A DNA stretch of 64,000 nt, taken from the NCBI RefSeq assembly GCF_034343125.1, contig NZ_CP139957.1:2662001-2726000 (forward strand), read 5' to 3'. Below are positions 12,986 to 25,943 of the stretch, piece by piece; within the stretch, counting starts at the first letter, position 1; each line of letters begins with the position of its first letter. Source of the stretch: Caldicellulosiruptor danielii (GTDB lineage Bacteria; Bacillota; Thermoanaerobacteria; Caldicellulosiruptorales; Caldicellulosiruptoraceae). The notes under the pieces were generated by a model. It was not told where the DNA came from and did not search any database. It worked only from the letters and a program-made list of their open reading frames with translations. The position numbers and the translations under genes are program-made.

Positions 12986-14214
12986 ATGAAAAGATTTTGG
13001 AGCTTGCAAAGTCAGCTTTAAATAAAAAAGCCTCTTTTGGCACAGACATTGACCTTTCCCAGTTTGAAGAGGCAGAGGAAAAAGACCAGATTTCAGAACT
13101 TTCTAAACTTCCAGAAGAGATTCAAAAAACAATCCTAAATGCTGGAATAGAAGTATCTGAAGAAGGTCGGTCGGCAAGCTTTTTGCAACTTGATCACTCT
13201 GTTGTATACAGACGGCTTCAACAAAGGTACCAAGGCCAGCTTGAGATTCTTGATATAAATGAAGCTTTGGAAAAGTATCCAGAGGTTCGTGAAAAATATT
13301 TCTGGAAAGCGGTAAAGCCTGACAGGGACAAATACACAGCATTTTCGGCAACACACCCTGTTCATGGGTATTTTATAAGAGTGTTCAAAGGGCAGAAGGT
13401 TGAAAAACCAATACAGGCATGCTTACTTTTACAAGAAAATGCAAGGATACAAAACGTGCACAACATCGTCATCTTGGAAGAAGGAGCAGAGGTTCAGATA
13501 ATAAACGGGTGTGCAACGGCGCCAAAGGTAAAAGAAGGACTTCATATTGGAATTTCTGAGTTTTATCTTGAAAAGGGAAGCAGGCTAACATTCACAATGG
13601 TTCACAACTGGGCAGAGGATTTTTATGTAAGACCAAGGGGAGTGACGGTTGTTGAGGATGATGCTGTGTTTATTTCAAACTATGTTCTTTTAAAACCTGT
13701 GAAATCCATACAATCGTTCCCCATTGCAATCTTGAAAGGTAAAAACTCGGTTGCGTCCTTTAACTCGCTCTTGTATGGGCTAAAAGATTCTGAGATTGAC
13801 ATGGGATCACATATAATATTGGAAGGTGAAAATTCAAGCGGTCAAGCAATATCAAGGGCAATTGTAAAAGACAGCGCTAAGATTTACTCACGCGGAATTT
13901 TAGAGGCACGTCAAAACCTCTCAAAAGCGCACCTTGACTGCCGCGGAATACTTCTATCAAGCACTGGAATGATGTATGCTGTGCCAGAGCTACTGTCAGC
14001 CGGTGCGCCACAGAGCCACCTTTCACATGAGGCTGCAATTGGTCCTATTGCCGAAGAAGAGGTAGAATACCTGATGGCAAGAGGACTTTCAAAAGACGAG
14101 GCAATATCTCTTATAACCCAAGGGTTTATGGATGTAAAAATACTTGGGCTTCCAAAACAGCTTGAAAATTATATTCAGGAGCTTATTTTGCAGACCCAGG
14201 AGGAGAATATGTAA
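12964..14214 (+). CDS. sufB: SufB/SufD-family Fe-S scaffold protein
   Basis: The 416-aa product starts at TTG 12964, with GGGAGG 8-9 bp upstream inside sufC. The C-terminal half shows the SufBD beta-helix core: SYVLLKPVKS-like strands, ILEARQNLSKAHLDCRGILLS, and the closing segment LLSAGAPQSHLSHEAAIGPI. SufB accepts sulfur and iron and nucleates the cluster. It is shorter than the SufB of full SUF operons. The locus lacks sufD, sufS and sufU and so fits the minimal two-gene SufCB (SmsCB) arrangement considered ancestral. The cysteine desulfurase must be elsewhere. Confidence 0.85.
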   Translation: MFARHYVDEKILELAKSALNKKASFGTDIDLSQFEEAEEKDQISELSKLPEEIQKTILNAGIEVSEEGRSASFLQLDHSVVYRRLQQRYQGQLEILDINEALEKYPEVREKYFWKAVKPDRDKYTAFSATHPVHGYFIRVFKGQKVEKPIQACLLLQENARIQNVHNIVILEEGAEVQIINGCATAPKVKEGLHIGISEFYLEKGSRLTFTMVHNWAEDFYVRPRGVTVVEDDAVFISNYVLLKPVKSIQSFPIAILKGKNSVASFNSLLYGLKDSEIDMGSHIILEGENSSGQAISRAIVKDSAKIYSRGILEARQNLSKAHLDCRGILLSSTGMMYAVPELLSAGAPQSHLSHEAAIGPIAEEEVEYLMARGLSKDEAISLITQGFMDVKILGLPKQLENYIQELILQTQEENM

Positions 14215-14252
14215 ATATTCTAATTATAGATGGTTTGCAAAATTTAAAACAG

Positions 14253-14280
14253 TTGACTATTACTCATTTAGAGGTATAAT
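14253..14280 (+). promoter_or_regulatory. Strong sigma-A promoter driving an intergenic RNA
   Basis: TTGACT (14253-14258), a 16-bp spacer and TATAAT (14275-14280), with no coding region downstream on this strand before the convergent permease gene. Confidence 0.75.
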
Positions 14281-14286
14281 GATGTT

Positions 14287-14435
14287 GTAAAAAGGAAAAG
14301 TTAATAATAGACAGGGGAACTGTCATTGAAAGAGGCAAGGTGGTCAACCCGAAACACTATCCGTTTATTTTGGATAGTTAAGGCTTCTTTTGGGTTAAAG
14401 TTTTAAGGGTTTGCTGCCTTGCCCATTATTTTTTA
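14287..14435 (+). ncRNA. Structured small RNA of unknown family
   Basis: A predicted transcript of about 145 nt contains, in order: a hairpin GACAG/CTGTC (14310-14324 region); an outer stem GGCAAGG (about 14335-14341) pairing with CCTTGCC (about 14417-14423); inside it AACCC pairing with GGGTT; and a terminal hairpin ACTATCC/GGATAGT. A T-rich end (ATTATTTTTT) follows the outer stem as an intrinsic terminator. There is no open reading frame. It lacks the SRP tetraloop domain, and I could not fit it to known riboswitch consensus patterns. The function is unknown. Confidence 0.6.
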
Positions 14436-15620
14436 TTCGTATCTTAGCGCCTCTATAGGATTTAAGCGGGCAGCTTTTTCTGCCGGAAGCATTCCAAAAA
14501 TTACTCCTATCAAAACCGAAATTCCAAAAGCCACAAAAGCCCACTTTAGCGAATACACAGGCTCAACCCCAGGAATTCTTGAAATCCCCACTGCAATTAT
14601 AAAAAATCCAAGCAATATACCAATTATACCACCAACACCTGTTATTACCATCGACTCTATGAGAAACTGAACTCTGATATCGCTTCTCTTTGCTCCAATT
14701 GCCTTTCTAATTCCAATCTCTCTTGTTCTCTCTGTGACAGACACAAGCATTATATTCATAATCCCAATGCCGCCCACCACAAGAGAGATTGTTGCAATTC
14801 CACCAAGTATTATCATCAAAAGATATGTTATTCGATTGAGAGCCGACATAAGCTCTGACATATCATAGACTGAGTAGTTTTCTTGCTTTTTTATAATATT
14901 GCTCAAATATGCTTTGATTCTCTTTTTAACCTCATTATTCTTATCAGCAGAAACTGTGCGCACCAGAAAATTTTTTACAAGCGCATAGTTCTCTGTGGAC
15001 ATACTGCTTAGTGCAAATAAAGGCACTATGACACTATCATCAACAGTGTTGTCTCTACCTCCCTGCTCTTCTGTCAAAACTCCAACTACCTTAAAAACTT
15101 GACCATTTACGTTTATCTCTTGTCCTACTGGATTTTGATTATCAAATAGCTTTTTTTGAATTCTTGAGCCTATCACAGTAACTTTTTGTCTAAAATCACT
15201 ATCAACTGGGCTTATAAACCTTCCTTTCGAAAGTGCAAGGTTTTGTATCATCATATACTCGGCTGTTGCACCAATAATCTGGCACTCCTCTTTTTTACCT
15301 CTGAAAAGTGCCTGAGCAGGATATTGAACATAAGGGCTTACACTCAGGATAACATCGTTATTTTTTCTTGCAAACTTTAAAAATTCATCAACCGAAACAT
15401 CTTCGCTCTTTGAAGCGGGATTTATAAAAACATACACAAGGTTTGTACCAAGCTTTTCTATCTCTTTTGTAATACCAGCTGTGGTGCCCTCAGCCAGCCC
15501 CACAGCCGCAACTACCGCTCCAACACCTATAACAACACCAAGAAGAGTTAAAAACGACCTTAGCCTGTTTAGAAAAATGCTCTGGATTGCCATCTTACAA
15601 GAAAGCAAAAACTTTTCCAT
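14433..15620 (-). CDS. MacB/FtsX-like ABC transporter permease
   Basis: The 395-aa protein has one N-terminal membrane segment, a MacB-type periplasmic core domain of about 200 residues and three C-terminal membrane segments, including MNIMLVSVTERTREIGIRKAIGA, a hallmark of the MacB/FtsX permease family. It normally works with an ATPase and an adaptor in efflux or stress export. The adaptor gene lies 24 bp upstream, but no ATPase gene is in the operon; either one encoded elsewhere is shared or it was lost. Confidence 0.9.
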   Translation of the reverse strand: MEKFLLSCKMAIQSIFLNRLRSFLTLLGVVIGVGAVVAAVGLAEGTTAGITKEIEKLGTNLVYVFINPASKSEDVSVDEFLKFARKNNDVILSVSPYVQYPAQALFRGKKEECQIIGATAEYMMIQNLALSKGRFISPVDSDFRQKVTVIGSRIQKKLFDNQNPVGQEINVNGQVFKVVGVLTEEQGGRDNTVDDSVIVPLFALSSMSTENYALVKNFLVRTVSADKNNEVKKRIKAYLSNIIKKQENYSVYDMSELMSALNRITYLLMIILGGIATISLVVGGIGIMNIMLVSVTERTREIGIRKAIGAKRSDIRVQFLIESMVITGVGGIIGILLGFFIIAVGISRIPGVEPVYSLKWAFVAFGISVLIGVIFGMLPAEKAARLNPIEALRYE

Positions 15621-15644
15621 CTTACAACATCTTCCCCTTTTTTG

Positions 15645-17285
15645 CTAAAAAAGACTCTGACCCTGTTTTTCGCTATCAAACTTTGGAAGAACTACTTCTT
15701 CGCCTTCTTTAAGCCCATCTAAGATTTCTACGTACTTATCAGTGGTCATTCCAAGTTTGACCTGTCTTTTTTCTGCATCTTTATAGTAAGAGCTGTCAAG
15801 TCCGTATTCATCTGTTTTCTGGCTGGCTTTTGGTTCTTTGTTTTTCTCAGAAGTTTTAGCTTTTTGTGTGTAAACATACACATAATATTTTCCATCTTCT
15901 TTATGCACTGCTTCAACTGGTACAACCAGTGCATCTTCTTTGGACTTTAAAACAATTTCTGCCTCTGCATGCATCCCAATTTTTATATTGCTGTTATTTT
16001 CAAATTCTATTTTAACAACAAACTTTGAGATGCTGCTACTATCTGCTTGAGCCTTTTCGGAAATCTCTGCAACATACCCTTCTATAGGGTTATTCTTGGT
16101 GCTTTCCACCGCATCAACCTTTATGTTAACCTTCTGCCCAGGCTTTACCTTCAAAATGTCAAGCTCTTCCACCTGAGCACTTATCACAAGGTGTTTCGGG
16201 TCATACACCGAGCATATTAACTGGCCGGCAGTGACAACATCACCTTCCTGGAAATTCAAATCAGCTATTTTGCCACTAATTGGTGCAAAAATTTTATAGT
16301 TTTTCAAATCATCTTCGGCTGCTTTTATCTGGGATTCCATATCCTCTATTTTTAAATCAAGCTGTTTCATTTGCATTTCAATATCATCCAAAACAAATTT
16401 TAAAAGCAAATCGCCTGTTTTTACCTTCTGTCCATTTTCAACAAAAACCTTTTCTATTCTGCCAGAAACAGGGCTTACAATGCTCTTTTTTGAAAATGCT
16501 CCCAAAATCCCTTCACTAAGTGATGTCACTTTTTTGCCATTTGAAAGCATAAAACTTACATTTGCCCTCATACCTTCAGTCAAACTGCTATTTTTGTTTG
16601 AAACTACTATCTTTGCATCAAACACTATTGCTCCATCCTGATTTTTATATATCCTGCTTCCCAAGCTTTCAACAACACCACCGACACTGTCCATAAGGTC
16701 AGATACTACAACCTCTACCTTCTGTCCCCTTTTTACCTTTCCATAGCACCAGGCAGGAAACTGGACACTTAGCTTCATTCTTGAGTCATCAACAATGGTC
16801 ATCATTTGCATCCCCTGGCTTGCAAGCATACCTTCACCGGCAGAAATGTTTTGCACAAACCCATCCTGTGGCGATTTTAAAATTGAGTTTTGAAGCTGTC
16901 TTTGAAGATTTTCTTTTTGAAGTTGAAGATCAAGAAGCTGTCTTTTCAAAGATTCTATTTTGAAAGATGCCTGATTATCATCTATCAGAGCTATTATATC
17001 GCCTTTTTTCACAAACTGCCCATTTTTGACAAAAAGTTTTTTAACCTCACCATTTACTTTGGATAAAACATTCCTTGTGGTGCTACTTTGAATAGTGCCG
17101 GATACCAAAAGTGTTTGCTTTATAAAAATTCTCTTTGCTTTTGCAGTTTTTGGCTTTGATGAGGTAGTTTTTTTAACCCCGGATGGCATTGTAAAAACAA
17201 GTGTCAAAACAAAACCAACTGATATAAGTAAAATTACAATAACAGCTTTCTGCCAGTCCTTAAGTCCTTTTTTGGCATTCTGCAT
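15645..17285 (-). CDS. HlyD/MacA-type membrane fusion adaptor, duplicated lipoyl modules
   Basis: The 546-aa protein starts with a membrane anchor (VIVILLISVGFVLTLVF). It then has two successive lipoyl/barrel-sandwich units, around residues 65-160 and 265-360, each with the half-motifs GEVKKLFVKNGQFVKKGD or GRIEKVFVENGQKVKTGD and a short coiled coil. The family usually has one such unit, so this is a tandem form about 150 aa longer than MacA. It links the MacB-like permease (24 bp downstream) to the outside face of the membrane. The low-complexity lysine-rich insert near residue 475 is probably a linker. Confidence 0.88.
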   Translation of the reverse strand: MQNAKKGLKDWQKAVIVILLISVGFVLTLVFTMPSGVKKTTSSKPKTAKAKRIFIKQTLLVSGTIQSSTTRNVLSKVNGEVKKLFVKNGQFVKKGDIIALIDDNQASFKIESLKRQLLDLQLQKENLQRQLQNSILKSPQDGFVQNISAGEGMLASQGMQMMTIVDDSRMKLSVQFPAWCYGKVKRGQKVEVVVSDLMDSVGGVVESLGSRIYKNQDGAIVFDAKIVVSNKNSSLTEGMRANVSFMLSNGKKVTSLSEGILGAFSKKSIVSPVSGRIEKVFVENGQKVKTGDLLLKFVLDDIEMQMKQLDLKIEDMESQIKAAEDDLKNYKIFAPISGKIADLNFQEGDVVTAGQLICSVYDPKHLVISAQVEELDILKVKPGQKVNIKVDAVESTKNNPIEGYVAEISEKAQADSSSISKFVVKIEFENNSNIKIGMHAEAEIVLKSKEDALVVPVEAVHKEDGKYYVYVYTQKAKTSEKNKEPKASQKTDEYGLDSSYYKDAEKRQVKLGMTTDKYVEILDGLKEGEEVVLPKFDSEKQGQSLF

Positions 17286-17304
17286 GTTAAAATACTCTCC
17301 TTTG

Positions 17305-17967
17305 TTAACTGCCTCTAAACTTTGTAAAATTATTTACAACAATTGAAATTATCGGCATAATGAGTGTTACTACACTATAGATAAGTGTAACAATCGCACT
17401 TTTTAATTTACTCAGTTCGCAGACTGCAAATACTCCAATGCCAATTAGAACATACCGCCAAATAGCAAATACATTCAGGTATGTACTTACAAAATATTTA
17501 AAATCCATCTTAACATCTAACATGTTCAGATTTGTCGATCTGACATAAATAACATAGAAGATGAAATATGGAATCATTACAAGGTTTGCCACTGCCACAA
17601 TTGTAAGTGATCTTCTGTAATCAATCTCGCCACCTGCAAGCCTGACAATTATGAGTAAAACAAAGGAGGCAATTAAAAAAGAAATAAGGTAATGTAAAAA
17701 TGTCGTTCCTGCCAAATAGATAGGTGATTTTGTGAATTTCAAAGTTTTTAAAGTAGCTTCCTGTACCTGAGGGTCTTCAGTTATTTTTTTTATATACTCT
17801 AATATAGCTTCATCTGAGATTTTTGGCAAAAACAGCATAGACAGTCCTGCTATCAATGGTATGAAAATTAACAAAACTAAAAAATCCGGTTTTTCTTTAA
17901 TTTTTTGAAAAACCTTTGTTGGTGATATAATAAGATTTAAAAGATTCGAAGGTTTTAAATACTCCAT
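17305..17967 (-). CDS. Yip1-domain membrane protein
   Basis: The 220-aa protein has five predicted membrane segments and the N-terminal pattern of bacterial Yip1 (DUF1282-like) proteins, in which a short cytoplasmic stretch (LIISPTKVFQKIKEKP) precedes the first helix. The role of these proteins in bacteria is not established. It is the first gene of the operon Yip1-adaptor-permease and is spaced 19 bp from the adaptor, which suggests it helps that export system. Confidence 0.75.
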   Translation of the reverse strand: MEYLKPSNLLNLIISPTKVFQKIKEKPDFLVLLIFIPLIAGLSMLFLPKISDEAILEYIKKITEDPQVQEATLKTLKFTKSPIYLAGTTFLHYLISFLIASFVLLIIVRLAGGEIDYRRSLTIVAVANLVMIPYFIFYVIYVRSTNLNMLDVKMDFKYFVSTYLNVFAIWRYVLIGIGVFAVCELSKLKSAIVTLIYSVVTLIMPIISIVVNNFTKFRGS

Positions 17968-18078
17968 ACCCCAAAATCCTCCTTCTGAACTTACTCAAAA
18001 TTCACAAAGTAACTTATTTAGTATATCTATCTTATAAATGTTAATACCGGATGTCTATATTATAATCCAAGTTTTATT

Positions 18079-18258
18079 TTAAAGCAACAATGTTTTATGA
18101 ACTTTGAGTTCATTGCATAAAAATAATGTCAATGATACACATACTAACAATATTGGAATTACAATTGCAATTTTACTCACTTTCTTTTTGCTTTTGACAA
18201 TCGCTAATACAAAGAAAAAAGCTAAAACAGAATTTATTACAAAAAAAATTATGATCAT
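18079..18258 (-). CDS. Small hydrophobic protein at the end of the circular bacteriocin cluster
   Basis: This 59-aa frame (MIIIFFVINSVLAFF ... KTLLL) contains two membrane-spanning segments separated by a basic loop (KSKKK). AAGG lies 9 nt before its ATG at 18258. It begins 18 bp past the stop of the preceding small membrane gene on the same strand. Circular bacteriocin loci usually end in one or more small cationic hydrophobic immunity proteins, so an immunity or accessory role is inferred from size and place. There is no sequence recognition beyond that. Confidence 0.55.
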   Translation of the reverse strand: MIIIFFVINSVLAFFFVLAIVKSKKKVSKIAIVIPILLVCVSLTLFLCNELKVHKTLLL

Positions 18259-18276
18259 AAACTACTGCCTTCATTA

Positions 18277-18459
18277 TTATTTTGCTTTTCCTATTTTCAA
18301 CAATTCCTTTTGAAATAATCCATGCCATATAATCAATAAAATAGAAAATATTATTGCTACTTTAAAACCCTTAATATTAAAAAATACTTTTGCAACCACG
18401 GCACCCAGAACAATTGCTATAATCCCGATAATATATAACAATATCTTTTTGTTGCTCAT
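18277..18459 (-). CDS. Small cationic membrane protein, probable bacteriocin immunity protein
   Basis: The 60-aa protein (MSNKKILLYIIGII ... LLKIGKAK) has two hydrophobic helices and excess lysine. That fits the immunity proteins of circular bacteriocin clusters, which protect the producer by an unclear membrane mechanism. GGGAGG lies upstream of ATG 18459. It follows the ABC ATPase gene by 18 bp. Assignment rests on context and composition. Confidence 0.68.
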   Translation of the reverse strand: MSNKKILLYIIGIIAIVLGAVVAKVFFNIKGFKVAIIFSILLIIWHGLFQKELLKIGKAK

Positions 18460-18477
18460 TTTAAAATCCTCCCTGCC

Positions 18478-19119
18478 CTAATTAATTGTTTTTTGTAAAA
18501 GTCCAAAGTCAATAATTTTATCATACATTAACTTATCATCATCTGAATGCGAAACAATTAAAAATGATTTATCCTGTTTTTTCATTTCAAATATAATATT
18601 TGTCAAAGCTACTTTACTTTCTTTATCTAAGCTATTAAAAGGTTCATCCAAAAGATACAATTCAGCATTTTTAGCCAGCATCAAGGCTATAAACAATTTT
18701 TGTTTCATTCCTGCTGAATATTCTGAAATAGGTTGTTTCAGATATATATCTATATTTAATAAACCGCAAAATTCATACACTTTTTTAGTGTACTCGTTTT
18801 CATTAAAAATATATGAGAAAAACTTTATATTTTTAAAGCCAGAAAGATTTTCAAGCAAATATATTTTATCAGGAACATATGAAAACTTGAATTTTATATC
18901 AGAAAATCTTACTTGTTTACCATTCAAATATGCTGAGTAAGAAAGATTTTCGTCTTCAATAATTCCCATTAAAATTTTTAGTAATGTGGTCTTTCCACTT
19001 CCATTCGGTCCTATAATTTTTATCACTTCACTCTTATTAATAGACAAATTTAAATCTCTTAATATATACTTCTTCCCATCATAGCTGTATCTGAGATTTT
19101 CTATTTGCAGATAAGCCAT
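18478..19119 (-). CDS. ABC transporter ATPase of the circular bacteriocin cluster
   Basis: The 213-aa ATPase has Walker A GPNGSGKTT, signature YSAGMKQKL and Walker B LYLLDEPFNSLD, the usual length for a stand-alone nucleotide-binding subunit. In circular bacteriocin loci such an ATPase works with the membrane proteins in export or self-protection. It lies 37 bp after the SpoIIM-like gene and before the small immunity candidate. The bacteriocin role is inferred from the cluster. Confidence 0.88.
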   Translation of the reverse strand: MAYLQIENLRYSYDGKKYILRDLNLSINKSEVIKIIGPNGSGKTTLLKILMGIIEDENLSYSAYLNGKQVRFSDIKFKFSYVPDKIYLLENLSGFKNIKFFSYIFNENEYTKKVYEFCGLLNIDIYLKQPISEYSAGMKQKLFIALMLAKNAELYLLDEPFNSLDKESKVALTNIIFEMKKQDKSFLIVSHSDDDKLMYDKIIDFGLLQKTIN

Positions 19120-19156
19120 TTTATTTCACCTCAATAATGAGTAAGTTAATAATTTT

Positions 19157-19705
19157 TTATGCGTAATAAGATACAAGAGATTCGATAATTGCGGCACAAG
19201 CTACAAGAACAGTTGCTAAAAAAATTAAAAAAAGAATTCCTCTTAAATACATGTATGAGTGTCTTTCTTGGTTCATTGAATTTTTTGAAATTACATAAAT
19301 AACTTTCAAAGGATAATAACCTAAGGATGAAAAAAGTAAAAACCCGGTAATCTCAAATATAGCATGTGGTAATATGTATCTTAAAATTGGTAGCCACCCA
19401 TAACTATTATAAACACTTGCAAGAATATAGCCTAAAGTAATTCCATTATATATAACGTAAAACGTTGTCCCTATCCCAAATGATATAATACCAAAAAGTA
19501 AGGTCTTTAAGCAAGTTAATATATTATTTTCAAATATTTTAAAAAACGGCAATTTAGTTAAATTTATTTTAATATCCTTATTATAACCTATAAAAATTCC
19601 TATACTCAAAGCCAATATATAAAACATAAGTGATATTAAAAATAAAGGTTTAATTTCTTTAAAAGTTTTTATTATAACTACTTTTAACTTTTCTTCCTTT
19701 TGCAT
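19157..19705 (-). CDS. SpoIIM/DUF95-family membrane protein of the bacteriocin cluster
   Basis: The 182-aa protein has about five membrane segments and the SpoIIM/DUF95 features GIISFGIGTTFYVIYNGI and YILPHAIFEITGFLL. DUF95 proteins are a standard part of circular bacteriocin operons (carnocyclin, circularin, AS-48), where they are needed for production or immunity. ATG 19705 is preferred, but no strong ribosome site is seen; an upstream TTG at 19723 is possible. Either start lies inside the end of the 584-aa gene, so the two overlap and are probably coupled. Confidence 0.82.
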   Translation of the reverse strand: MQKEEKLKVVIIKTFKEIKPLFLISLMFYILALSIGIFIGYNKDIKINLTKLPFFKIFENNILTCLKTLLFGIISFGIGTTFYVIYNGITLGYILASVYNSYGWLPILRYILPHAIFEITGFLLFSSLGYYPLKVIYVISKNSMNQERHSYMYLRGILFLIFLATVLVACAAIIESLVSYYA

Positions 19706-21413
19706 AATTATCAACTTTCCCAACCCCTATACATAGACTAGAAATAAAGCAAAAACAAACAGTTAAATAACAATACAACCATTCCATACCTCTAAGTAAA
19801 GAAAATATTGTGTTAACTACCAAAAAACCAGTTGGTATAAATAATAAATAGTATCTTACAATTGCAATTGGAGCTTTAATGATAGTCATAATAGACTCAT
19901 CATTTTCTATTTCACTATATATTAGTAAATGTTGTATATTTCTTGTGAAGTACAAGTAATAAGGTTTTACTCTTTGAATTATTGCATACTTCATTGTTAT
20001 CAAAATTATTAAAATGTTAAACAAAAGAAAAACTGTTTTTAATTTTAAACTATACGAAAATATTAGTGTTATTAATAACGAACTAATCAGTATCGGTAAA
20101 GCAGAAAAAGTAATTAGAACTTTAATCTTTGGTATCATTAGCCCATCCCAAAATCTAAAATCTTCGCTACAGTATAATGCTAAACTAACTTTTTTATCAT
20201 AATTAAATTTAAATAAGTCTTCCATCATGAAATTGCACGTTCCAATATATCCATACATAATGAGATAAATACATATAAAATGAATAATTACAGAAACATA
20301 AAAGCTTTGAATTGTTCCTGCTACTGCTATACTTAAACCTATTGCAAAGAATAATTCATATGGGAAAAGACATTCTAAAATTTTATTTGGCTCTAAATTT
20401 TTGAGATAATTTATAAACAAGCATATATCCTTATAAAATCCGGCTTTCAATGAATTGTTATTTACTATTTTTGGTTTAGTATATCTACTAAATAAAAAAC
20501 AAAATATGTTTTTTACTGTGGCATTAATGCTTCTTCCTTTTTTATAATGGAAAAACCTTTTAGATTTACTAATGTTCTTTCTCAATATATAAAATGTTAT
20601 AAAGCAAATAGCAATTTCTATTATTACAGCCACAATATATGTTTTATTATTTTCCAACATGTTATTAACCATATTAGATAGTTTTTCTACTTTATGAATC
20701 CAGTAATAATACTTTCTGTTAAAATGATTATTTGTAATATTATCGAGGCTATTCAATATTTTATCAAAGGGTATTTTTAAAGCTTTATATTTATTTATAA
20801 CTGCACGTAGATCAAAGAGAAATTGTATCACAAATTTAGTTATAAAAAATATAATTAACGTTGCACAACCTCTCGAAAAAAGAAATGAAAAATAAATTCT
20901 CGATGTAGCATTACTGTTTAAAATATATTTTAAACAGTAAATTAACAACAAAAACACTTCAATAAATACATAAAACATTAAAAGCCCACTCATATTATGT
21001 AATAACGTCAAAATTATTATCAGAAATTTAATTAAAACAATTTCAACTTGTCTTGAAAAGTAGGAATACAAAAAAATCATTCTAAATGCTATTTCTTTGT
21101 TTGGTAAATATATATACAATAACTCAAATTCTGGCTTTTGTTGTAACTTACTTACGCTAACGTTATAAAACAAATTTAGGTTTATCAATAAATAAACTAA
21201 CAAAAAAATTAAGCATACCATATTTTTGTTATAATTATTTGAAATCTTTAACACAATACTTATTACGTAATATAAAACTACAAGCTCTAATATTTTTAAT
21301 GGTATATAAATAGTCTCCCACCTTTTCAAATTGAAAAATTTAGCAATTTTGTTATATCTTCTGTATAATTCTTCTTGTATAAACAAAAAATATATTTTCA
21401 AAAACCTTGTCAA
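19659..21413 (-). CDS. Large multispanning membrane protein of the bacteriocin cluster
   Basis: The 584-aa product starts at TTG 21413 with GAGGGG six bases upstream. It has about ten to twelve hydrophobic segments, is very rich in Ile, Leu, Tyr and Lys, and has no catalytic motif I recognise. In size, topology and position, directly after the precursor gene, it corresponds to the large membrane protein of circular bacteriocin loci (CclB/CirB/As-48B type), thought to take part in maturation and secretion. It is more AT-rich than the flanking housekeeping genes, which suggests transfer of the cluster. Confidence 0.7.
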   Translation of the reverse strand: MTRFLKIYFLFIQEELYRRYNKIAKFFNLKRWETIYIPLKILELVVLYYVISIVLKISNNYNKNMVCLIFLLVYLLINLNLFYNVSVSKLQQKPEFELLYIYLPNKEIAFRMIFLYSYFSRQVEIVLIKFLIIILTLLHNMSGLLMFYVFIEVFLLLIYCLKYILNSNATSRIYFSFLFSRGCATLIIFFITKFVIQFLFDLRAVINKYKALKIPFDKILNSLDNITNNHFNRKYYYWIHKVEKLSNMVNNMLENNKTYIVAVIIEIAICFITFYILRKNISKSKRFFHYKKGRSINATVKNIFCFLFSRYTKPKIVNNNSLKAGFYKDICLFINYLKNLEPNKILECLFPYELFFAIGLSIAVAGTIQSFYVSVIIHFICIYLIMYGYIGTCNFMMEDLFKFNYDKKVSLALYCSEDFRFWDGLMIPKIKVLITFSALPILISSLLITLIFSYSLKLKTVFLLFNILIILITMKYAIIQRVKPYYLYFTRNIQHLLIYSEIENDESIMTIIKAPIAIVRYYLLFIPTGFLVVNTIFSLLRGMEWLYCYLTVCFCFISSLCIGVGKVDNYAKGRKVKSSYNKNF

Positions 21414-21490
21414 TTTTATCCCCTCTTATCAAGTTCGAGCTCCTGAAAAATGTTAATTAAAAAATTTAATTTTGTGATAAAATTATTAAT

Positions 21491-21527
21491 GCAAGGGGTC
21501 GTTTTTTGACTTAACCGGACCCCTTGC
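21491..21527 (-). promoter_or_regulatory. Stem-loop between bacteriocin precursor gene and export genes
   Basis: GCAAGGGGTC (21491-21500) pairs perfectly over 10 bp with GACCCCTTGC (21518-21527). No T-tract follows on the minus strand. It lies between the precursor stop and the start of the 584-aa gene, a place where such stems commonly reduce read-through or protect the precursor mRNA. Confidence 0.75.
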
Positions 21528-21558
21528 AAAAGAGTTTGAAAAATCAAACACTAAAACT

Positions 21559-21783
21559 TTACCATAATATAGCTCCTCTCAAACCAAGTTGGGCAACCTT
21601 ACTTTTAACTAAATTAACAAAAGCTACCCAACCACCTTCAGCTAAAATTGCACTAATTCCAGCTGTAAGAATAGATGTTAAAGCTATTATAATTGAGACT
21701 ATCGTGGAACCAGTAAGTATAATATTTACGACAGTTGTAGCAATAGTTTCAGGAATTCCTAATGTTGCAGCTACAAGTAGCAT
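21559..21783 (-). CDS. Circular bacteriocin precursor, circularin A/AS-48 type
   Basis: The 74-aa, almost wholly hydrophobic peptide aligns by eye with circularin A and AS-48. The start MLLVAATLGIPE parallels the MFL leader plus VAGALGV of circularin A, followed by ATTVVNIIL, TSILTAGISAIL and a C-terminal RGAILW. Known members are cut after a short leader and joined head to tail. Here a three-residue leader (MLL) would give a ring of 71 residues closed between V4 and W74; this cut is inferred by analogy. GGGGAGGTG lies before ATG 21783. The ring would act by making the membrane of target cells permeable. It leads a minus-strand cluster with matching accessory genes. Confidence 0.88.
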   Translation of the reverse strand: MLLVAATLGIPETIATTVVNIILTGSTIVSIIIALTSILTAGISAILAEGGWVAFVNLVKSKVAQLGLRGAILW

Positions 21784-22357
21784 TTTCTATTCACCTCCCC
21801 TCTTTTTGATTTTTAAAATTTTGGGCTAAACGCTCCAAATGGAGCGTTTAATAAGCTTTCTAAGTTTTTAAAATCAAAGAGTATGTTTTTCTTAAATTAA
21901 AATGACTAAATAGGTATAGCTCTAAAATAAACTAATACTCATTAGTAATATAAATTTAGAACTACTATAGACAAACAATAATATCTTTTCCTCATTTCTC
22001 TAACACAGCTGATATTTTTGTATCTCAGTTTCTTTATTCTCTTATTTAGAGCATTTTATTCTCGAACTAGTTTTTTTGTAAACTTCTTCTTGGAATTTCT
22101 ATTGCAAATTTTATTTTATACATTTTCACTCTGTCAATCTCGTTTTTTTAGTTTTTAGTTTATTTTCAGCCAAATTTTAGGCTGAAGATACATTTTTCTT
22201 TAAATAGCTTAAAATTTCTCTAATTTTCTTGAGTTTGAAAAGCCAAGTCTGCAAATAGTTAAAATATATGGTTTTTGCTTTTAGAAACAAAAAGTCATAA
22301 GTCAACTTGTTCAGTAATCTTTATAAGTTTTAGCCTTCAATTTTCAAATTCAAAATT
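21784..22357. other. Noncoding upstream region of the bacteriocin cluster
   Basis: About 570 bp of very AT-rich DNA with no gene. Two features stand out. A 9-bp hairpin AAACGCTCC/GGAGCGTTT at 21828-21849 lies in the leader of the precursor gene. An inverted repeat ACTAATACTCATTAGT at 21931-21946 could be a regulator site. I could not choose a promoter with confidence. Confidence 0.6.
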
Positions 22358-24202
22358 CTACACCACCGCAAACTGGCTCATATAGAGGTTGTAGTAAAAT
22401 CCTCTCTTTTGCAAAAGCTCTTCATGCGTCCCTTGTTCAACAATTTGGCCATTGTTTATGACAAGAATCAAGTCAGCATTTCTGATTGTAGAGAGTCTGT
22501 GAGCTATGACAAAGCTTGTTCGACCTTGCATAAGCTTTAGCATCGCTTCCCCTACAAGCTTTTCTGTCCTTGTGTCGATGTTGCTTGTTGCCTCATCCAA
22601 AATCAAGATTGCCGGGTCAGACAAGATTGCCCGTGCTAAAGCCAAAAGCTGTCTTTGTCCTTGGCTAAGGTCTGCCCCGCCATCTGTCAGCACTGTTTTG
22701 TAGCCGTGTGGCAAGTGTTTTATAAACTCATGAGCATTTGCAATTTTGGCTGCTTTTATCACCTCATCATCTTTTGCCGTGAGCTTTCCATAGCGAATAT
22801 TCTCCATCACAGGTTCAGAGAAAAGATATGTGTCCTGAAGTACAATCCCAAGGCTTTTTCTCAAAGACTCTCTTTTTATCTTCCTTATATCTATTCCATC
22901 AATGAGAATCTCACCTTTGTCAATGTCATAAAACCTTGTAAGCAAATTGACAATTGTAGTTTTGCCAGCACCAGTTGGACCAACCAAGGCTATCATCTGC
23001 CCAGGCTTTGCGTGAAAGCTTATGTTTTTTAAAACAGGCTCACCTTCTTTGTATGAAAACCACACATTCCTAAACTCAACCTCACCCTTGATATTTGTAA
23101 GCTCAATTGCATCTTTTTCATCTTCTTTTTCTTCTTCCTCATCCATTATTTCAAATACTCTTTCTGCTGCAGCAAAGGCAGATTGAAGCTGGTTGAACTG
23201 GTTTGCAAGCTCATTCAAAGGACGTACAAACTGTCTTGCATATTGGACAAAGCTTGCAATCACGCCCACTGATATGCTACCTTTTAAAGCTAAATACCCA
23301 CCTGTTGCTGCAACAATTATAAAAGCAAAGTTGTTGAGCATATTCATAAGCGGCGGAATTACACCAGATAGAATTTGAGCTTTTGTGCCAACCTGAGTCA
23401 AATCCTTGTTTATCTCAATAAACTTATTTATTTCTTTTTCCTCTCTTGTAAACACCTTAATAACCTTTTGACCTGTGATGTCCTCTTCAATAATCCCATT
23501 GAGTTTCCCAAGCAGTTTTTGGTTTTGTGAAAAGTATTTTCTTGTATTTTTAGCAATCAGGTTTGTCAAAAAGAACATAAGCGGCACAACCAAAAGTGTA
23601 CAAGCTGTCAAGATAGGACTTATCAAAAGCATTACAATGGCTGAACCAAAAAGTGTAATTGTGCTTGAGAAAATTGAAGTTACACTTGCATTGACTGTGT
23701 TGTTAACAACATCAATGTCGTTTGTAAGCCTGCTCATCAAATCACCATGAGCGCGTGTATCAAATATCTTTACAGGAAGTCTCTGGAGCTTTGAAAACAT
23801 GTCATTTCGCATATTAAAAACAACTCTTTGAGAAATCTTCATCATTCCATATCCCTGAAGATAAGCAAAAAGAGAGTTTAGAATATACAGCATAGCCATT
23901 GCAAAGACGATATTTACAAGCCCTGTAAATTTCCTGGGCACTATATAGTCATCTATAGCTTTTTTTATCAAAAGGGGGGAGATTATTGAGATAAATGAAC
24001 TAACTGTTATTAGCAAAAACACACTCAATAGTGATAATTTATAGCTGCTAAAATACCTCCAAAGCCTTTTTAGTGTATTTTTCAAATCTTTTGGCTTTGC
24101 AGAAGGATGAGAAAACCTGTGCCCCGGTCCTCTGCCGGGTGCAGGACCAGGTCCAAAGGCATGTGGCAGTGTTTGAACCTCTTTTCTTCTTTCATCAGGC
24201 AA
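22358..24202 (-). CDS. Heterodimeric ABC exporter subunit (canonical Walker B)
   Basis: The 614-aa half-transporter has six membrane segments and a C-terminal ATPase: Walker A GPTGAGKTT, signature LSQGQRQLLALARA, Walker B ILILDEATSNID with the catalytic glutamate. The signature has Q where G is usual (LSGGQ). The N-terminus carries a Pro/Gly-rich extension (GPGPAPGRGPGHR). Together with the partner gene, which overlaps by 8 bp, it forms a BmrCD/LmrCD-like heterodimer, a multidrug or lipid exporter. A MarR-type gene directly upstream in the operon suggests drug-responsive control. Confidence 0.9.
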   Translation of the reverse strand: MPDERRKEVQTLPHAFGPGPAPGRGPGHRFSHPSAKPKDLKNTLKRLWRYFSSYKLSLLSVFLLITVSSFISIISPLLIKKAIDDYIVPRKFTGLVNIVFAMAMLYILNSLFAYLQGYGMMKISQRVVFNMRNDMFSKLQRLPVKIFDTRAHGDLMSRLTNDIDVVNNTVNASVTSIFSSTITLFGSAIVMLLISPILTACTLLVVPLMFFLTNLIAKNTRKYFSQNQKLLGKLNGIIEEDITGQKVIKVFTREEKEINKFIEINKDLTQVGTKAQILSGVIPPLMNMLNNFAFIIVAATGGYLALKGSISVGVIASFVQYARQFVRPLNELANQFNQLQSAFAAAERVFEIMDEEEEKEDEKDAIELTNIKGEVEFRNVWFSYKEGEPVLKNISFHAKPGQMIALVGPTGAGKTTIVNLLTRFYDIDKGEILIDGIDIRKIKRESLRKSLGIVLQDTYLFSEPVMENIRYGKLTAKDDEVIKAAKIANAHEFIKHLPHGYKTVLTDGGADLSQGQRQLLALARAILSDPAILILDEATSNIDTRTEKLVGEAMLKLMQGRTSFVIAHRLSTIRNADLILVINNGQIVEQGTHEELLQKRGFYYNLYMSQFAVV

Positions 24203-25943
24203 TTTCCTTCTCCCCCTCTCCCATCTGAGTCTGGTAAATCTCTTGGTAAATTGGGCAGCTTTTCAAAAGCTCTTCATGCCTGCCTTGTGCCACAATTCTT
24301 CCACCATCCATAACCAAAATCTTATCTGCATGTTTTATAGAAGATATTCTCTGAGCAATTATAAATGTTGTAGTGCCTTTGATATACTCTTTCAAGGCTG
24401 CTTGAATTCTCTTTTCTGTCGCCATGTCAACAGCTGATGTGCAGTCGTCTAAGATGAGTATCTTTGGCTTTTTTAAGATAGCCCTTGCAATAGAGATTCT
24501 CTGTTTTTGTCCTCCGGAAAGATTCACACCTCGCTCAGATACTTCTGTGTCATAGCCCTTTTGAAAGCTCATTATAAAGTCATGAGCCTGGGCAGCTTTT
24601 GCTGCTTCAATTATCTCTTCCATTGATGCATCTTCATCTCCCCATGCAATATTATCCTTTATAGTTCCTGTAAAAAGAATGGTGTCCTGCAATACCATGC
24701 TGATACTTTTCCTTAAAACGGTCACATCATAGTCTTTAACATTTATTCCGTCAATCAAAACCTCACCTTCTGTAGCATCGTAAAGTCTTGGAATAAGACT
24801 TACTAAAGTTGATTTTCCTGAACCTGTGGTGCCGATTATCCCAATAACTTCACCGGGCTCTGCAACAAAAGAGATTCCCTCAAGAGCAGGGCTGTTTTCT
24901 TTTTCATTGTAATAGAATGTGACATTCCTAAACTCTACCCTTCCTTCTTTTATCGGAGTTGTAATTGCCCCATCTTTGTTTTTGATGTCAACCTCACAGC
25001 TCAAAACCTCATTTATTCTCTCAGCAGACGCGCTTGCCCTTGTAATGAACAAAAAGATATTGCCTATCATCATCAACGAAAATAGAATTTGCAATGTGTA
25101 GTTTATAAATGCCATAAGCTCACCAACCTGCATATTTGCTGCTTTTATCTGAACTGCCCCAAACCATACAACCCCTACCATGCTCATGTTCATGACAAGC
25201 ATAAAAAGTGGCATTGTAATCACAATCAGCCCGAAGGCCTGGAGTGATATATCTAAAAGGTCTTGATTTGCCTTTAAAAACCTTGACTTTTCATGTTCAT
25301 GCCTGACAAATGCTTTTACAAGTCGAGCTCCCAGCAAATTTTCACGCATAACTGCATTGACCCTATCTATTTTCTTTTGAAGAGTTGAAAACAGTGGAAA
25401 ACTCTTTTTGACCATAAAGTAAAATATTAAAATTACAAAGGGAATTGCAATAAATAAAATGATGGAAAGCTTTGGATTTATCAAAACTGCCATTACAAGC
25501 CCACCGATGAAAAGAAGTGGAGCTCTTACAACAATTCTCAAAGACATCATGACAATATTTTGCATCTGCATGACATCATTTGTAAGCCTTGTGATTAAAG
25601 TTTCTGGCTTAAACCTGTCAATGTTTTTGAACGAAAAAGCCATAACTTTCTTGAACAGATCATTTCTTAAATCAAATGCAAAGTTTTGGCTTGCAATGCT
25701 TGAAAACACAACACAGCCGCCACCGCCTATCATTCCAATTAACGCTGCCAAAATCATCAAAAGCCCGGTTTTGAAAATATATGCCATATTCCCGTTTTTG
25801 ATCCCAACATCTATTATTCTCTCCAAAAACCTTGGCTGCATGAGGTCCATCACAACCTCTAAAAGCATAAAAAGCGGAGCTAATACCACCGCCCATGTGT
25901 AGGGTTTTAAATATCTAAAAAGCTTAAACATTAATTTCCTCAT
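24195..25943 (-). CDS. Heterodimeric ABC exporter subunit (degenerate Walker B)
   Basis: The 582-aa half-transporter has six membrane segments and an ATPase domain with Walker A GTTGSGKST, a canonical signature LSGGQKQRISIARA and Walker B ILILDDCTSAVD, in which the catalytic Glu is Asp. This Asp, together with the LSQGQ signature of the partner, makes one ATP site non-canonical, as in BmrC/BmrD. Its start lies inside the end of the MarR-like gene, overlapping by about 20 bp. Substrate not predictable. Confidence 0.9.
   Translation of the reverse strand: MRKLMFKLFRYLKPYTWAVVLAPLFMLLEVVMDLMQPRFLERIIDVGIKNGNMAYIFKTGLLMILAALIGMIGGGGCVVFSSIASQNFAFDLRNDLFKKVMAFSFKNIDRFKPETLITRLTNDVMQMQNIVMMSLRIVVRAPLLFIGGLVMAVLINPKLSIILFIAIPFVILIFYFMVKKSFPLFSTLQKKIDRVNAVMRENLLGARLVKAFVRHEHEKSRFLKANQDLLDISLQAFGLIVITMPLFMLVMNMSMVGVVWFGAVQIKAANMQVGELMAFINYTLQILFSLMMIGNIFLFITRASASAERINEVLSCEVDIKNKDGAITTPIKEGRVEFRNVTFYYNEKENSPALEGISFVAEPGEVIGIIGTTGSGKSTLVSLIPRLYDATEGEVLIDGINVKDYDVTVLRKSISMVLQDTILFTGTIKDNIAWGDEDASMEEIIEAAKAAQAHDFIMSFQKGYDTEVSERGVNLSGGQKQRISIARAILKKPKILILDDCTSAVDMATEKRIQAALKEYIKGTTTFIIAQRISSIKHADKILVMDGGRIVAQGRHEELLKSCPIYQEIYQTQMGEGEKEIA

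What the first reader, a model, noticed from the sequence alone, without database searches (positions are those of the whole stretch)
18079..21783. Complete circular bacteriocin cluster in a probable thermophile
The 74-aa peptide has the leader length, strand order and C-terminal aromatic residue of circularin A/AS-48 peptides, and the same strand holds a large membrane protein, a SpoIIM/DUF95 protein, an ABC ATPase and one or two small cationic membrane proteins, the full set known from such loci. The predicted product is a 71-residue ring closed V4 to W74. A member from a thermophile would be of interest for heat-stable ring peptides. No strain data were available, so novelty cannot be stated.
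Basis: partly seen in the sequence, partly recalled or inferred. Interest (0 to 1): 0.85.

Follow-up and report, generated by a model that had tools for sequence, protein, structure and literature searches.

The report
Circular bacteriocin cluster in Caldicellulosiruptor
A heat-loving bacterium carries a compact, apparently working set of genes for a ring-shaped antibacterial peptide; this cluster type was already predicted in its sister species, and the less expected part is that its promoter belongs to a genus-wide repeated promoter that also precedes many of the genus's other antimicrobial-peptide operons.

Summary
The minus strand at 18277-21783 encodes a circularin A/uberolysin-type circular bacteriocin precursor (74 aa; TIGR03651, 82 bits against a cut-off of 30.7; PF09221 above cut-off; sequence match to the solved AS-48), a large membrane protein, a SpoIIM/DUF95 protein, an ABC ATPase and a 60-aa cationic membrane protein, probably the immunity protein. 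All five genes are under purifying selection. The genome is a Caldicellulosiruptor species. Predicted product: a V4-W74 ring of 71 residues, average mass 7167.5 Da, net charge about +1.

Letzel et al. 2014 (PMC4289311) already reported circularin A-like clusters in C. bescii and C. saccharolyticus, the 85-86% identical orthologues of this one. Thermophile circular bacteriocins are known too (pallidocyclin, thermocin 458).

One correction: the 59-aa gene at 18079 is probably a decaying remnant; it is broken in all three sister clusters.

Beyond the finding: the operon's promoter (about 22085-22229) is one copy of a roughly 145-bp element with 10 copies in this genome, about 115 across 12 genomes of the genus, and none found in 25 other genomes of the class. 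It often precedes class II bacteriocin, lanthipeptide or radical-SAM peptide operons.

The parts
21559..21783 (-). Circular bacteriocin precursor, 74 aa (leader MLL, predicted mature ring V4-W74, 71 residues)
   Evidence: TIGR03651 82.3 bits, PF09221 53.7 bits, AS-48 structure match; orthologues 85-86% identical in C. bescii and C. saccharolyticus; dN/dS 0.33; the leader/ring boundary is inferred from the family
19659..21413 (-). Large polytopic membrane protein, 584 aa, TTG start with GAGGGG ribosome-binding site; inferred role in maturation/secretion
   Evidence: No family hit; about 12 predicted membrane segments; 80% identical in sister clusters; weak match to the same-position protein of the Anoxybacillus cluster (E 1e-5); dN/dS 0.35-0.37
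19157..19723 (-). SpoIIM/DUF95 membrane protein (188 aa from TTG 19723, or 182 aa from ATG 19705); transporter/secretion partner
   Evidence: PF01944 73.6 bits, cut-off 26.9; 87-89% identical in sister clusters
18478..19119 (-). ABC transporter ATPase, 213 aa, no membrane domain
   Evidence: PF00005 87 bits; 90-92% identical in sister clusters; dN/dS 0.15
18277..18459 (-). Small cationic membrane protein, 60 aa, pI 10.4, two predicted membrane segments; probable immunity protein
   Evidence: pI and hydropathy, membrane segments, intact in all four clusters, 69-71% identity, dN/dS about 0.2; family expectation of a short cationic hydrophobic immunity protein (PMC11409674)
18079..18258 (-). 59-aa remnant related to the 73-aa last gene of class II bacteriocin loci; probably not a functional part
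   Evidence: Broken by stop and frameshift in three sister clusters; intact 73-aa homologues in L013, L016, L017
22085..22229 (-). Core of the genus-wide promoter element; contains the best promoter of the region (TTGACA-18-TAAAAT, 22137-22108)
   Evidence: Model R1, E 8e-27 here, 10 copies in the genome; promoter scan 11 of 12 matches; alignment
21930..21983 (-). Short reading-frame remnant MRKRYYCLSIVVLNLYY-stop, matching the first codons of C39-peptidase bacteriocin exporters elsewhere in the genus
   Evidence: Alignment of element copies with downstream MRKRYYCVKQHDITDC starts
21831..21852 (-). 5' leader hairpin AAACGCTCC-ATTT-GGAGCGTTT upstream of the ribosome-binding site
   Evidence: Folding z about -2.5 to -3.3; stem kept with a changed loop in C. 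bescii (AAGT) and C. saccharolyticus (ACTT)
21490..21528 (-). Hairpin between the precursor and biosynthesis genes (GCAAGGGGTC ... GACCCCTTGC); likely partial terminator or mRNA stabiliser
   Evidence: Folding -19.8 kcal/mol, z -4.6; stem conserved in C. saccharolyticus

Best explanation
This is a compact, probably functional circular bacteriocin operon of the circularin A/uberolysin family in a Caldicellulosiruptor species, orthologous to the C. bescii (Athe_2617) and C. saccharolyticus (Csac_0526) clusters. Proposed steps: (1) transcription starts in the genus-wide promoter element at about 22108 and runs through a long leader; the hairpin after the precursor gene lets precursor mRNA exceed biosynthesis mRNA (inferred); (2) the 74-aa precursor loses MLL and the backbone is joined V4 to W74, with the membrane proteins of the cluster required (inferred from the family; to my knowledge the enzyme is not established even for studied members); (3) the ring is exported by the ATPase together with SpoIIM/DUF95 and the large membrane protein (inferred from leucocyclicin Q work cited in PMC7132975); (4) the ring, a hydrophobic helical peptide of the AS-48 type, permeabilises membranes of related Gram-positive competitors at high temperature (inferred); (5) the 60-aa cationic membrane protein, helped by the transporter, protects the producer (inferred). 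Shown here: gene content, homology, conservation, purifying selection, promoter-element homology.
For: Precursor profile hits well above curated cut-offs; AS-48 structure match by sequence; SpoIIM and ABC hits; same gene order with 80-92% identical main proteins in C. bescii and C. saccharolyticus and dN/dS 0.15-0.37 in all five genes; published prediction of the orthologous clusters (PMC4289311); same order precursor - large membrane protein - SpoIIM - ATPase on an Anoxybacillus plasmid annotated as uberolysin/carnocyclin family; low G+C island (25% against 36-37%) flanked by conserved genes, with an empty site in G009.
Against: No experimental evidence of ring formation or activity in this genus was found in the library searched. 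Net charge is only about +1 (two Lys, one Arg, two Glu) against about +6 for AS-48, so there is almost no polybasic region. The structure model from one sequence is weak (pLDDT 75, pTM 0.41). The precursor is already broken in one sister species, G003 (start and first 17 residues deleted), so the system can be lost.
Confidence: 0.92

Rival explanations
1. The cluster is a decaying or silent relic: homologous to circular bacteriocin loci but no longer producing an active ring.
For: The sister cluster in G003 has lost the start of the precursor; the 59-aa gene is a remnant in all four clusters; a C. kronotskyensis-sized genome (G006) retains only ATPase and 60-aa homologues, the ATPase lacking a clear start codon.
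Against: In this genome all five core genes are open, with ribosome-binding sites seen for the precursor and the large membrane protein, and all show purifying selection against C. bescii and C. saccharolyticus; leader hairpin and promoter are conserved.
Confidence: 0.08
2. The 74-aa peptide is not an antibiotic but a conserved small membrane protein whose SpoIIM/ABC partners export something else.
For: SpoIIM and ABC ATPase are generic families; the peptide has little positive charge.
Against: The family model is specific to circular bacteriocins and its cut-off is exceeded by 50 bits; no such gene in 14 control genomes; the promoter is shared with bacteriocin operons.
Confidence: 0.02

Closest known systems
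Circularin A-like clusters of C. bescii DSM 6725 (Athe_2615-2617) and C. saccharolyticus DSM 8903 (Csac_0523-0526), predicted in Letzel et al. 2014 (PMC4289311)
   Same: Same genus; precursor 85-86% identical; same gene order and position next to the YknW-like gene
   Different: About 10-11 residue changes in the precursor; the other two have a small change in the leader region; the 59-aa gene is in a different state of decay. That L007/L008 hold these locus tags is inferred from genome identity and size
Circular bacteriocin cluster on Anoxybacillus amylolyticus plasmid NZ_CP015440.1 (thermophile)
   Same: Precursor 56% identical; same order of large membrane protein, SpoIIM, ATPase
   Different: On a plasmid, in the class Bacilli, large membrane protein hardly alike
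Enterocin AS-48 (PDB 1e68, 1o82-1o84)
   Same: Full-length alignment, C-terminal Trp, DUF95 and ABC partners (PMC3942455)
   Different: AS-48 is far more basic (about +6) and has a second EFGH immunity transporter inside the cluster
Pallidocyclin (Aeribacillus pallidus PI8) and thermocin 458 (Geobacillus stearothermophilus)
   Same: Circular bacteriocins of thermophiles
   Different: Other peptides; pallidocyclin ends in Ala (PMC11409674)

Membership tests
Circularin A/uberolysin circular bacteriocins (TIGR03651, PF09221) | Precursor scores above the curated family cut-off | tested here: met
   82.3 against 30.7 bits; 53.7 against 23.6 bits
Circularin A/uberolysin circular bacteriocins (TIGR03651, PF09221) | Hydrophobic first mature residue and (usually) aromatic last residue | tested here: met
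   V4 and W74 by alignment to AS-48 and the Anoxybacillus peptide; rule from PMC11409674
Circularin A/uberolysin circular bacteriocins (TIGR03651, PF09221) | SpoIIM/DUF95 protein and a soluble ABC ATPase in the cluster | tested here: met
   PF01944 and PF00005
Circularin A/uberolysin circular bacteriocins (TIGR03651, PF09221) | Short cationic hydrophobic immunity protein | tested here: met
   60 aa, pI 10.4, GRAVY 1.28; protection itself not testable
Circularin A/uberolysin circular bacteriocins (TIGR03651, PF09221) | Polybasic region in the mature peptide | tested here: inconclusive
   Only K60, K62 and R69; common but not universal in the family (PMC7132975: two subfamilies have 1-2 basic residues)
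Circularin A/uberolysin circular bacteriocins (TIGR03651, PF09221) | Saposin-like bundle of 4-5 helices | tested here: inconclusive
   All-helical single-sequence model, pTM 0.41; AS-48 matched by sequence
Circularin A/uberolysin circular bacteriocins (TIGR03651, PF09221) | Head-to-tail backbone ring | not testable with these tools
   Needs mass spectrometry: ring 7167.5 Da average, 7163.18 Da monoisotopic
Circularin A/uberolysin circular bacteriocins (TIGR03651, PF09221) | Antibacterial activity | not testable with these tools
   Needs an activity assay

The most novel reading that the evidence does not exclude
The circular bacteriocin is one member of a genus-wide antimicrobial-peptide regulon: a roughly 145-bp promoter element so far seen only in Caldicellulosiruptor, with 1-19 copies per genome, drives circular, class II, lanthipeptide and radical-SAM peptide operons together under one unidentified regulator. 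Peptide operons are swapped in and out behind it, which is how the circular operon came to sit between the promoter and tail gene of a former class II bacteriocin operon.
Probability: 0.5. Interest if true: 0.5.

Novelty: new member of a known kind. Interest (0 to 1): 0.3.

Why it matters
As a bacteriocin it adds one more orthologue of a cluster already predicted in this genus. It would be a candidate for an unusually heat-stable, nearly uncharged peptide ring, from a genus for which no purified example was found in the library searched. The shared promoter element matters more: if it is a common switch for peptide warfare in Caldicellulosiruptor, it makes the regulation of many antimicrobial-peptide operons testable at once, and it gives a sequence tag for finding new peptide loci whose precursors are too small or too odd to be recognised by homology.

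Tried and rejected
Single-sequence structure prediction gave two long helices with low pTM; it was not used for a fold search because a low-confidence model gives meaningless matches. Rfam scan of 17900-22400: only sub-threshold chance hits, so the leader is no known RNA family. The genome-contig scan with the precursor found one distant relative only (Lactobacillales MAG, 39%). No match among phage records. The idea that the 59-aa gene is a second immunity gene was rejected: it is broken in three of four clusters. The idea that G006 carries a clean orphan immunity locus was weakened: its ATPase copy lacks a normal start codon next to what looks like a transposase fragment. The idea that the neighbouring YknW/adaptor/MacB-like genes (14433-17967) belong to the cluster as an AS-48EFGH-like immunity transporter was not adopted: strong matches occur in 11 of 12 genomes of the genus with or without the bacteriocin and no ATPase gene is adjacent. 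The large membrane protein could not be assigned to any family.

Full report
CHECK OF THE OBSERVATION. The minus strand of 18079-21783 holds six small-to-medium ORFs as described. The 74-aa ORF at 21559-21783 follows a strong ribosome-binding site and scores 82.3 bits against TIGR03651, circularin A/uberolysin family (cut-off 30.7), and 53.7 bits against PF09221 (cut-off 23.6). It aligns end to end with the solved AS-48 (E 6e-6). No control genome out of 14 has a TIGR03651 match. The companion genes are a 584-aa protein with about 12 predicted membrane segments and no family, a SpoIIM/DUF95 protein, an ABC ATPase and a 60-aa protein of pI 10.4. This is not chance.

THE ORGANISM. The window is part of a single 2,822,094-bp contig. 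One of the other genomes of its genus, G002, carries an 8291-bp plasmid identical over the 3000 bases compared to NC_012036.1 of Caldicellulosiruptor bescii DSM 6725, so the genus is Caldicellulosiruptor and the thermophile guess is right. The species itself was not named. G011 (2,970,275 bp) and G006 (2,843,785 bp) have the sizes I remember for C. saccharolyticus DSM 8903 and C. kronotskyensis; these two names are from memory.

RELATIVES. Of 12 genomes in the genus, four have a TIGR03651 precursor. The clusters in C. bescii (L007) and G011 (L008) have the same gene order, with precursor 86/85% identical, large membrane protein 80%, SpoIIM 87-88%, ATPase 90-92% and 60-aa protein 69-71%. Nei-Gojobori dN/dS is 0.33 for the precursor, 0.35-0.37 for the membrane protein, 0.34-0.35 for SpoIIM, 0.15 for the ATPase and about 0.2 for the 60-aa gene: all are being kept. 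In G003 a deletion of roughly 180 bp has removed the start and first 17 residues of the precursor, so that copy is broken. Outside the genus the best relative found is a cluster on a plasmid of the thermophile Anoxybacillus amylolyticus (56% identical precursor, same order of genes).

PRIOR ART. Letzel et al. 2014 (PMC4289311) list head-to-tail cyclised peptide clusters similar to circularin A in C. bescii (Athe_2615/2617) and C. saccharolyticus (Csac_0523/0526), with identical gene order. The window's cluster is their orthologue in another species. Circular bacteriocins of thermophiles are also known: thermocin 458 of G. stearothermophilus (table in PMC7132975) and pallidocyclin of A. pallidus PI8 (PMC11409674 citing Kita 2023). 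The finding is therefore a new member of a known kind, close to already known.

HOW IT PROBABLY WORKS. By analogy to the family: MLL is removed, V4 is joined to W74, the ATPase with SpoIIM/DUF95 exports the ring (in leucocyclicin Q, removing the DUF95 protein left circular peptide inside cells; PMC7132975), the ring permeabilises competitor membranes and the 60-aa cationic membrane protein protects the producer. None of these steps is shown here. The computed ring has an average mass of 7167.5 Da, GRAVY 1.37 and net charge about +1, much less basic than AS-48 (about +6 from the sequence shown).

CORRECTION. The 59-aa gene (18079-18258) is interrupted by a stop and a frameshift in all three sister clusters. 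Its intact homologues are 73-78 aa and lie at the end of class II bacteriocin loci (L013, L016, L017). It is best read as a remnant, so the cluster has one small cationic membrane protein, not two.

THE ISLAND AND ITS PROMOTER. The cluster is 25% G+C against 36-37% on both sides and sits between a YknW-like gene (17305-17967) and an ABC exporter pair (22358-25943). In G009 the same flanks are about 240 bp apart, an empty site; in G008 and G010 a different gene encoding a 553-aa protein lies between them. A DNA search showed that about 300 bp upstream of the precursor recur at many places in the genus. Aligned copies share an A+T-rich upstream half, then TTGACA-18-TAAAAT, which is the best promoter in the region. 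A sequence model of the 145-bp core finds 10 copies in this genome and about 115 in the 12 genomes of the genus (1-19 each), and none in 25 other genomes of the class. Of 66 distinct copies with enough downstream DNA, 20 lead straight into a C39-peptidase bacteriocin exporter and 4 into the circular bacteriocin cluster. Others precede a LanM with a plantaricin C-family lantibiotic precursor (L065), radical-SAM maturases including an AlbA-like one (L012, L014), ABC transporters, secreted proteins and genes I could not name. The exporter copy in this genome (L010) is TIGR01193, bacteriocin ABC, and is followed by two small proteins with double-glycine-like leaders. In the window the element ends in MRKRYYCLS..., the first codons of that exporter, followed by a stop; and the 59-aa remnant at the far end resembles the last gene of those loci. 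The simplest reading is that the circular operon replaced the body of a class II bacteriocin operon and kept its promoter. Shared ancestry of the element copies is shown; a shared regulator is inferred. The 66 copies are not a random sample, so enrichment was not tested statistically.

LEADER RNA. A perfect hairpin lies between promoter and start codon and keeps its stem with different loops in C. bescii and C. saccharolyticus. A second strong hairpin (-19.8 kcal/mol, z -4.6) follows the precursor gene. Both are likely to shape the ratio of precursor to biosynthesis mRNA; this is inferred.

VERDICT. Observation confirmed, interpretation supported, novelty low. The promoter element is the part that deserves a second look.

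Noticed in passing
window 21975-22275 (core 22085-22229), plus L010-L020, L028-L077: Genus-specific repeated promoter element (10 copies in this genome, about 115 in 12 genomes, none in 25 other genomes of the class), often upstream of antimicrobial-peptide operons of several classes; no Rfam match..
   Followed up: partly
L010 5257-9390 (own genome 1,408,256-1,412,389): Class II bacteriocin locus: C39-peptidase ABC exporter (TIGR01193), HlyD-like protein and two small glycine-rich peptides with double-glycine-like leaders, behind the same promoter element.
   Followed up: partly
L012 (own genome 965,000-984,000): About five copies of the promoter element within 15 kb, around two radical-SAM proteins (one AlbA-like, with a Cys-rich 49-52-aa peptide just upstream) and several secreted or membrane proteins; a possible sactipeptide region.
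   Followed up: partly
window 14433-17967: YknW-, adaptor- and MacB-permease-like genes next to the bacteriocin island, without an adjacent ATPase gene; strong DNA matches in 11 of 12 genomes of the genus. B. subtilis YknWXYZ protects against a peptide toxin (Yamada 2012, cited in PMC10598978), so a role in accessory immunity is possible.
   Followed up: partly
window 18277-18459 compared with L007 and L008: Synonymous divergence of the 60-aa gene (0.75-0.81) is about three times that of its neighbours (0.17-0.29), which may mean a separate history or fast change of the immunity gene; the gene is short, so this may be noise.
   Followed up: no
L016 (G006) 13127-14548: Promoter element followed by homologues of the ATPase (83% identical, no clear start codon) and the 60-aa protein but no precursor: a deletion remnant or an immunity-only locus.
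   Followed up: partly
L022 and L023 (G008, G010): At the same chromosomal site where this genome has the bacteriocin island, two sister species carry a different gene for a 553-aa protein with two hydrophobic N-terminal stretches, so the site is variable.
   Followed up: no
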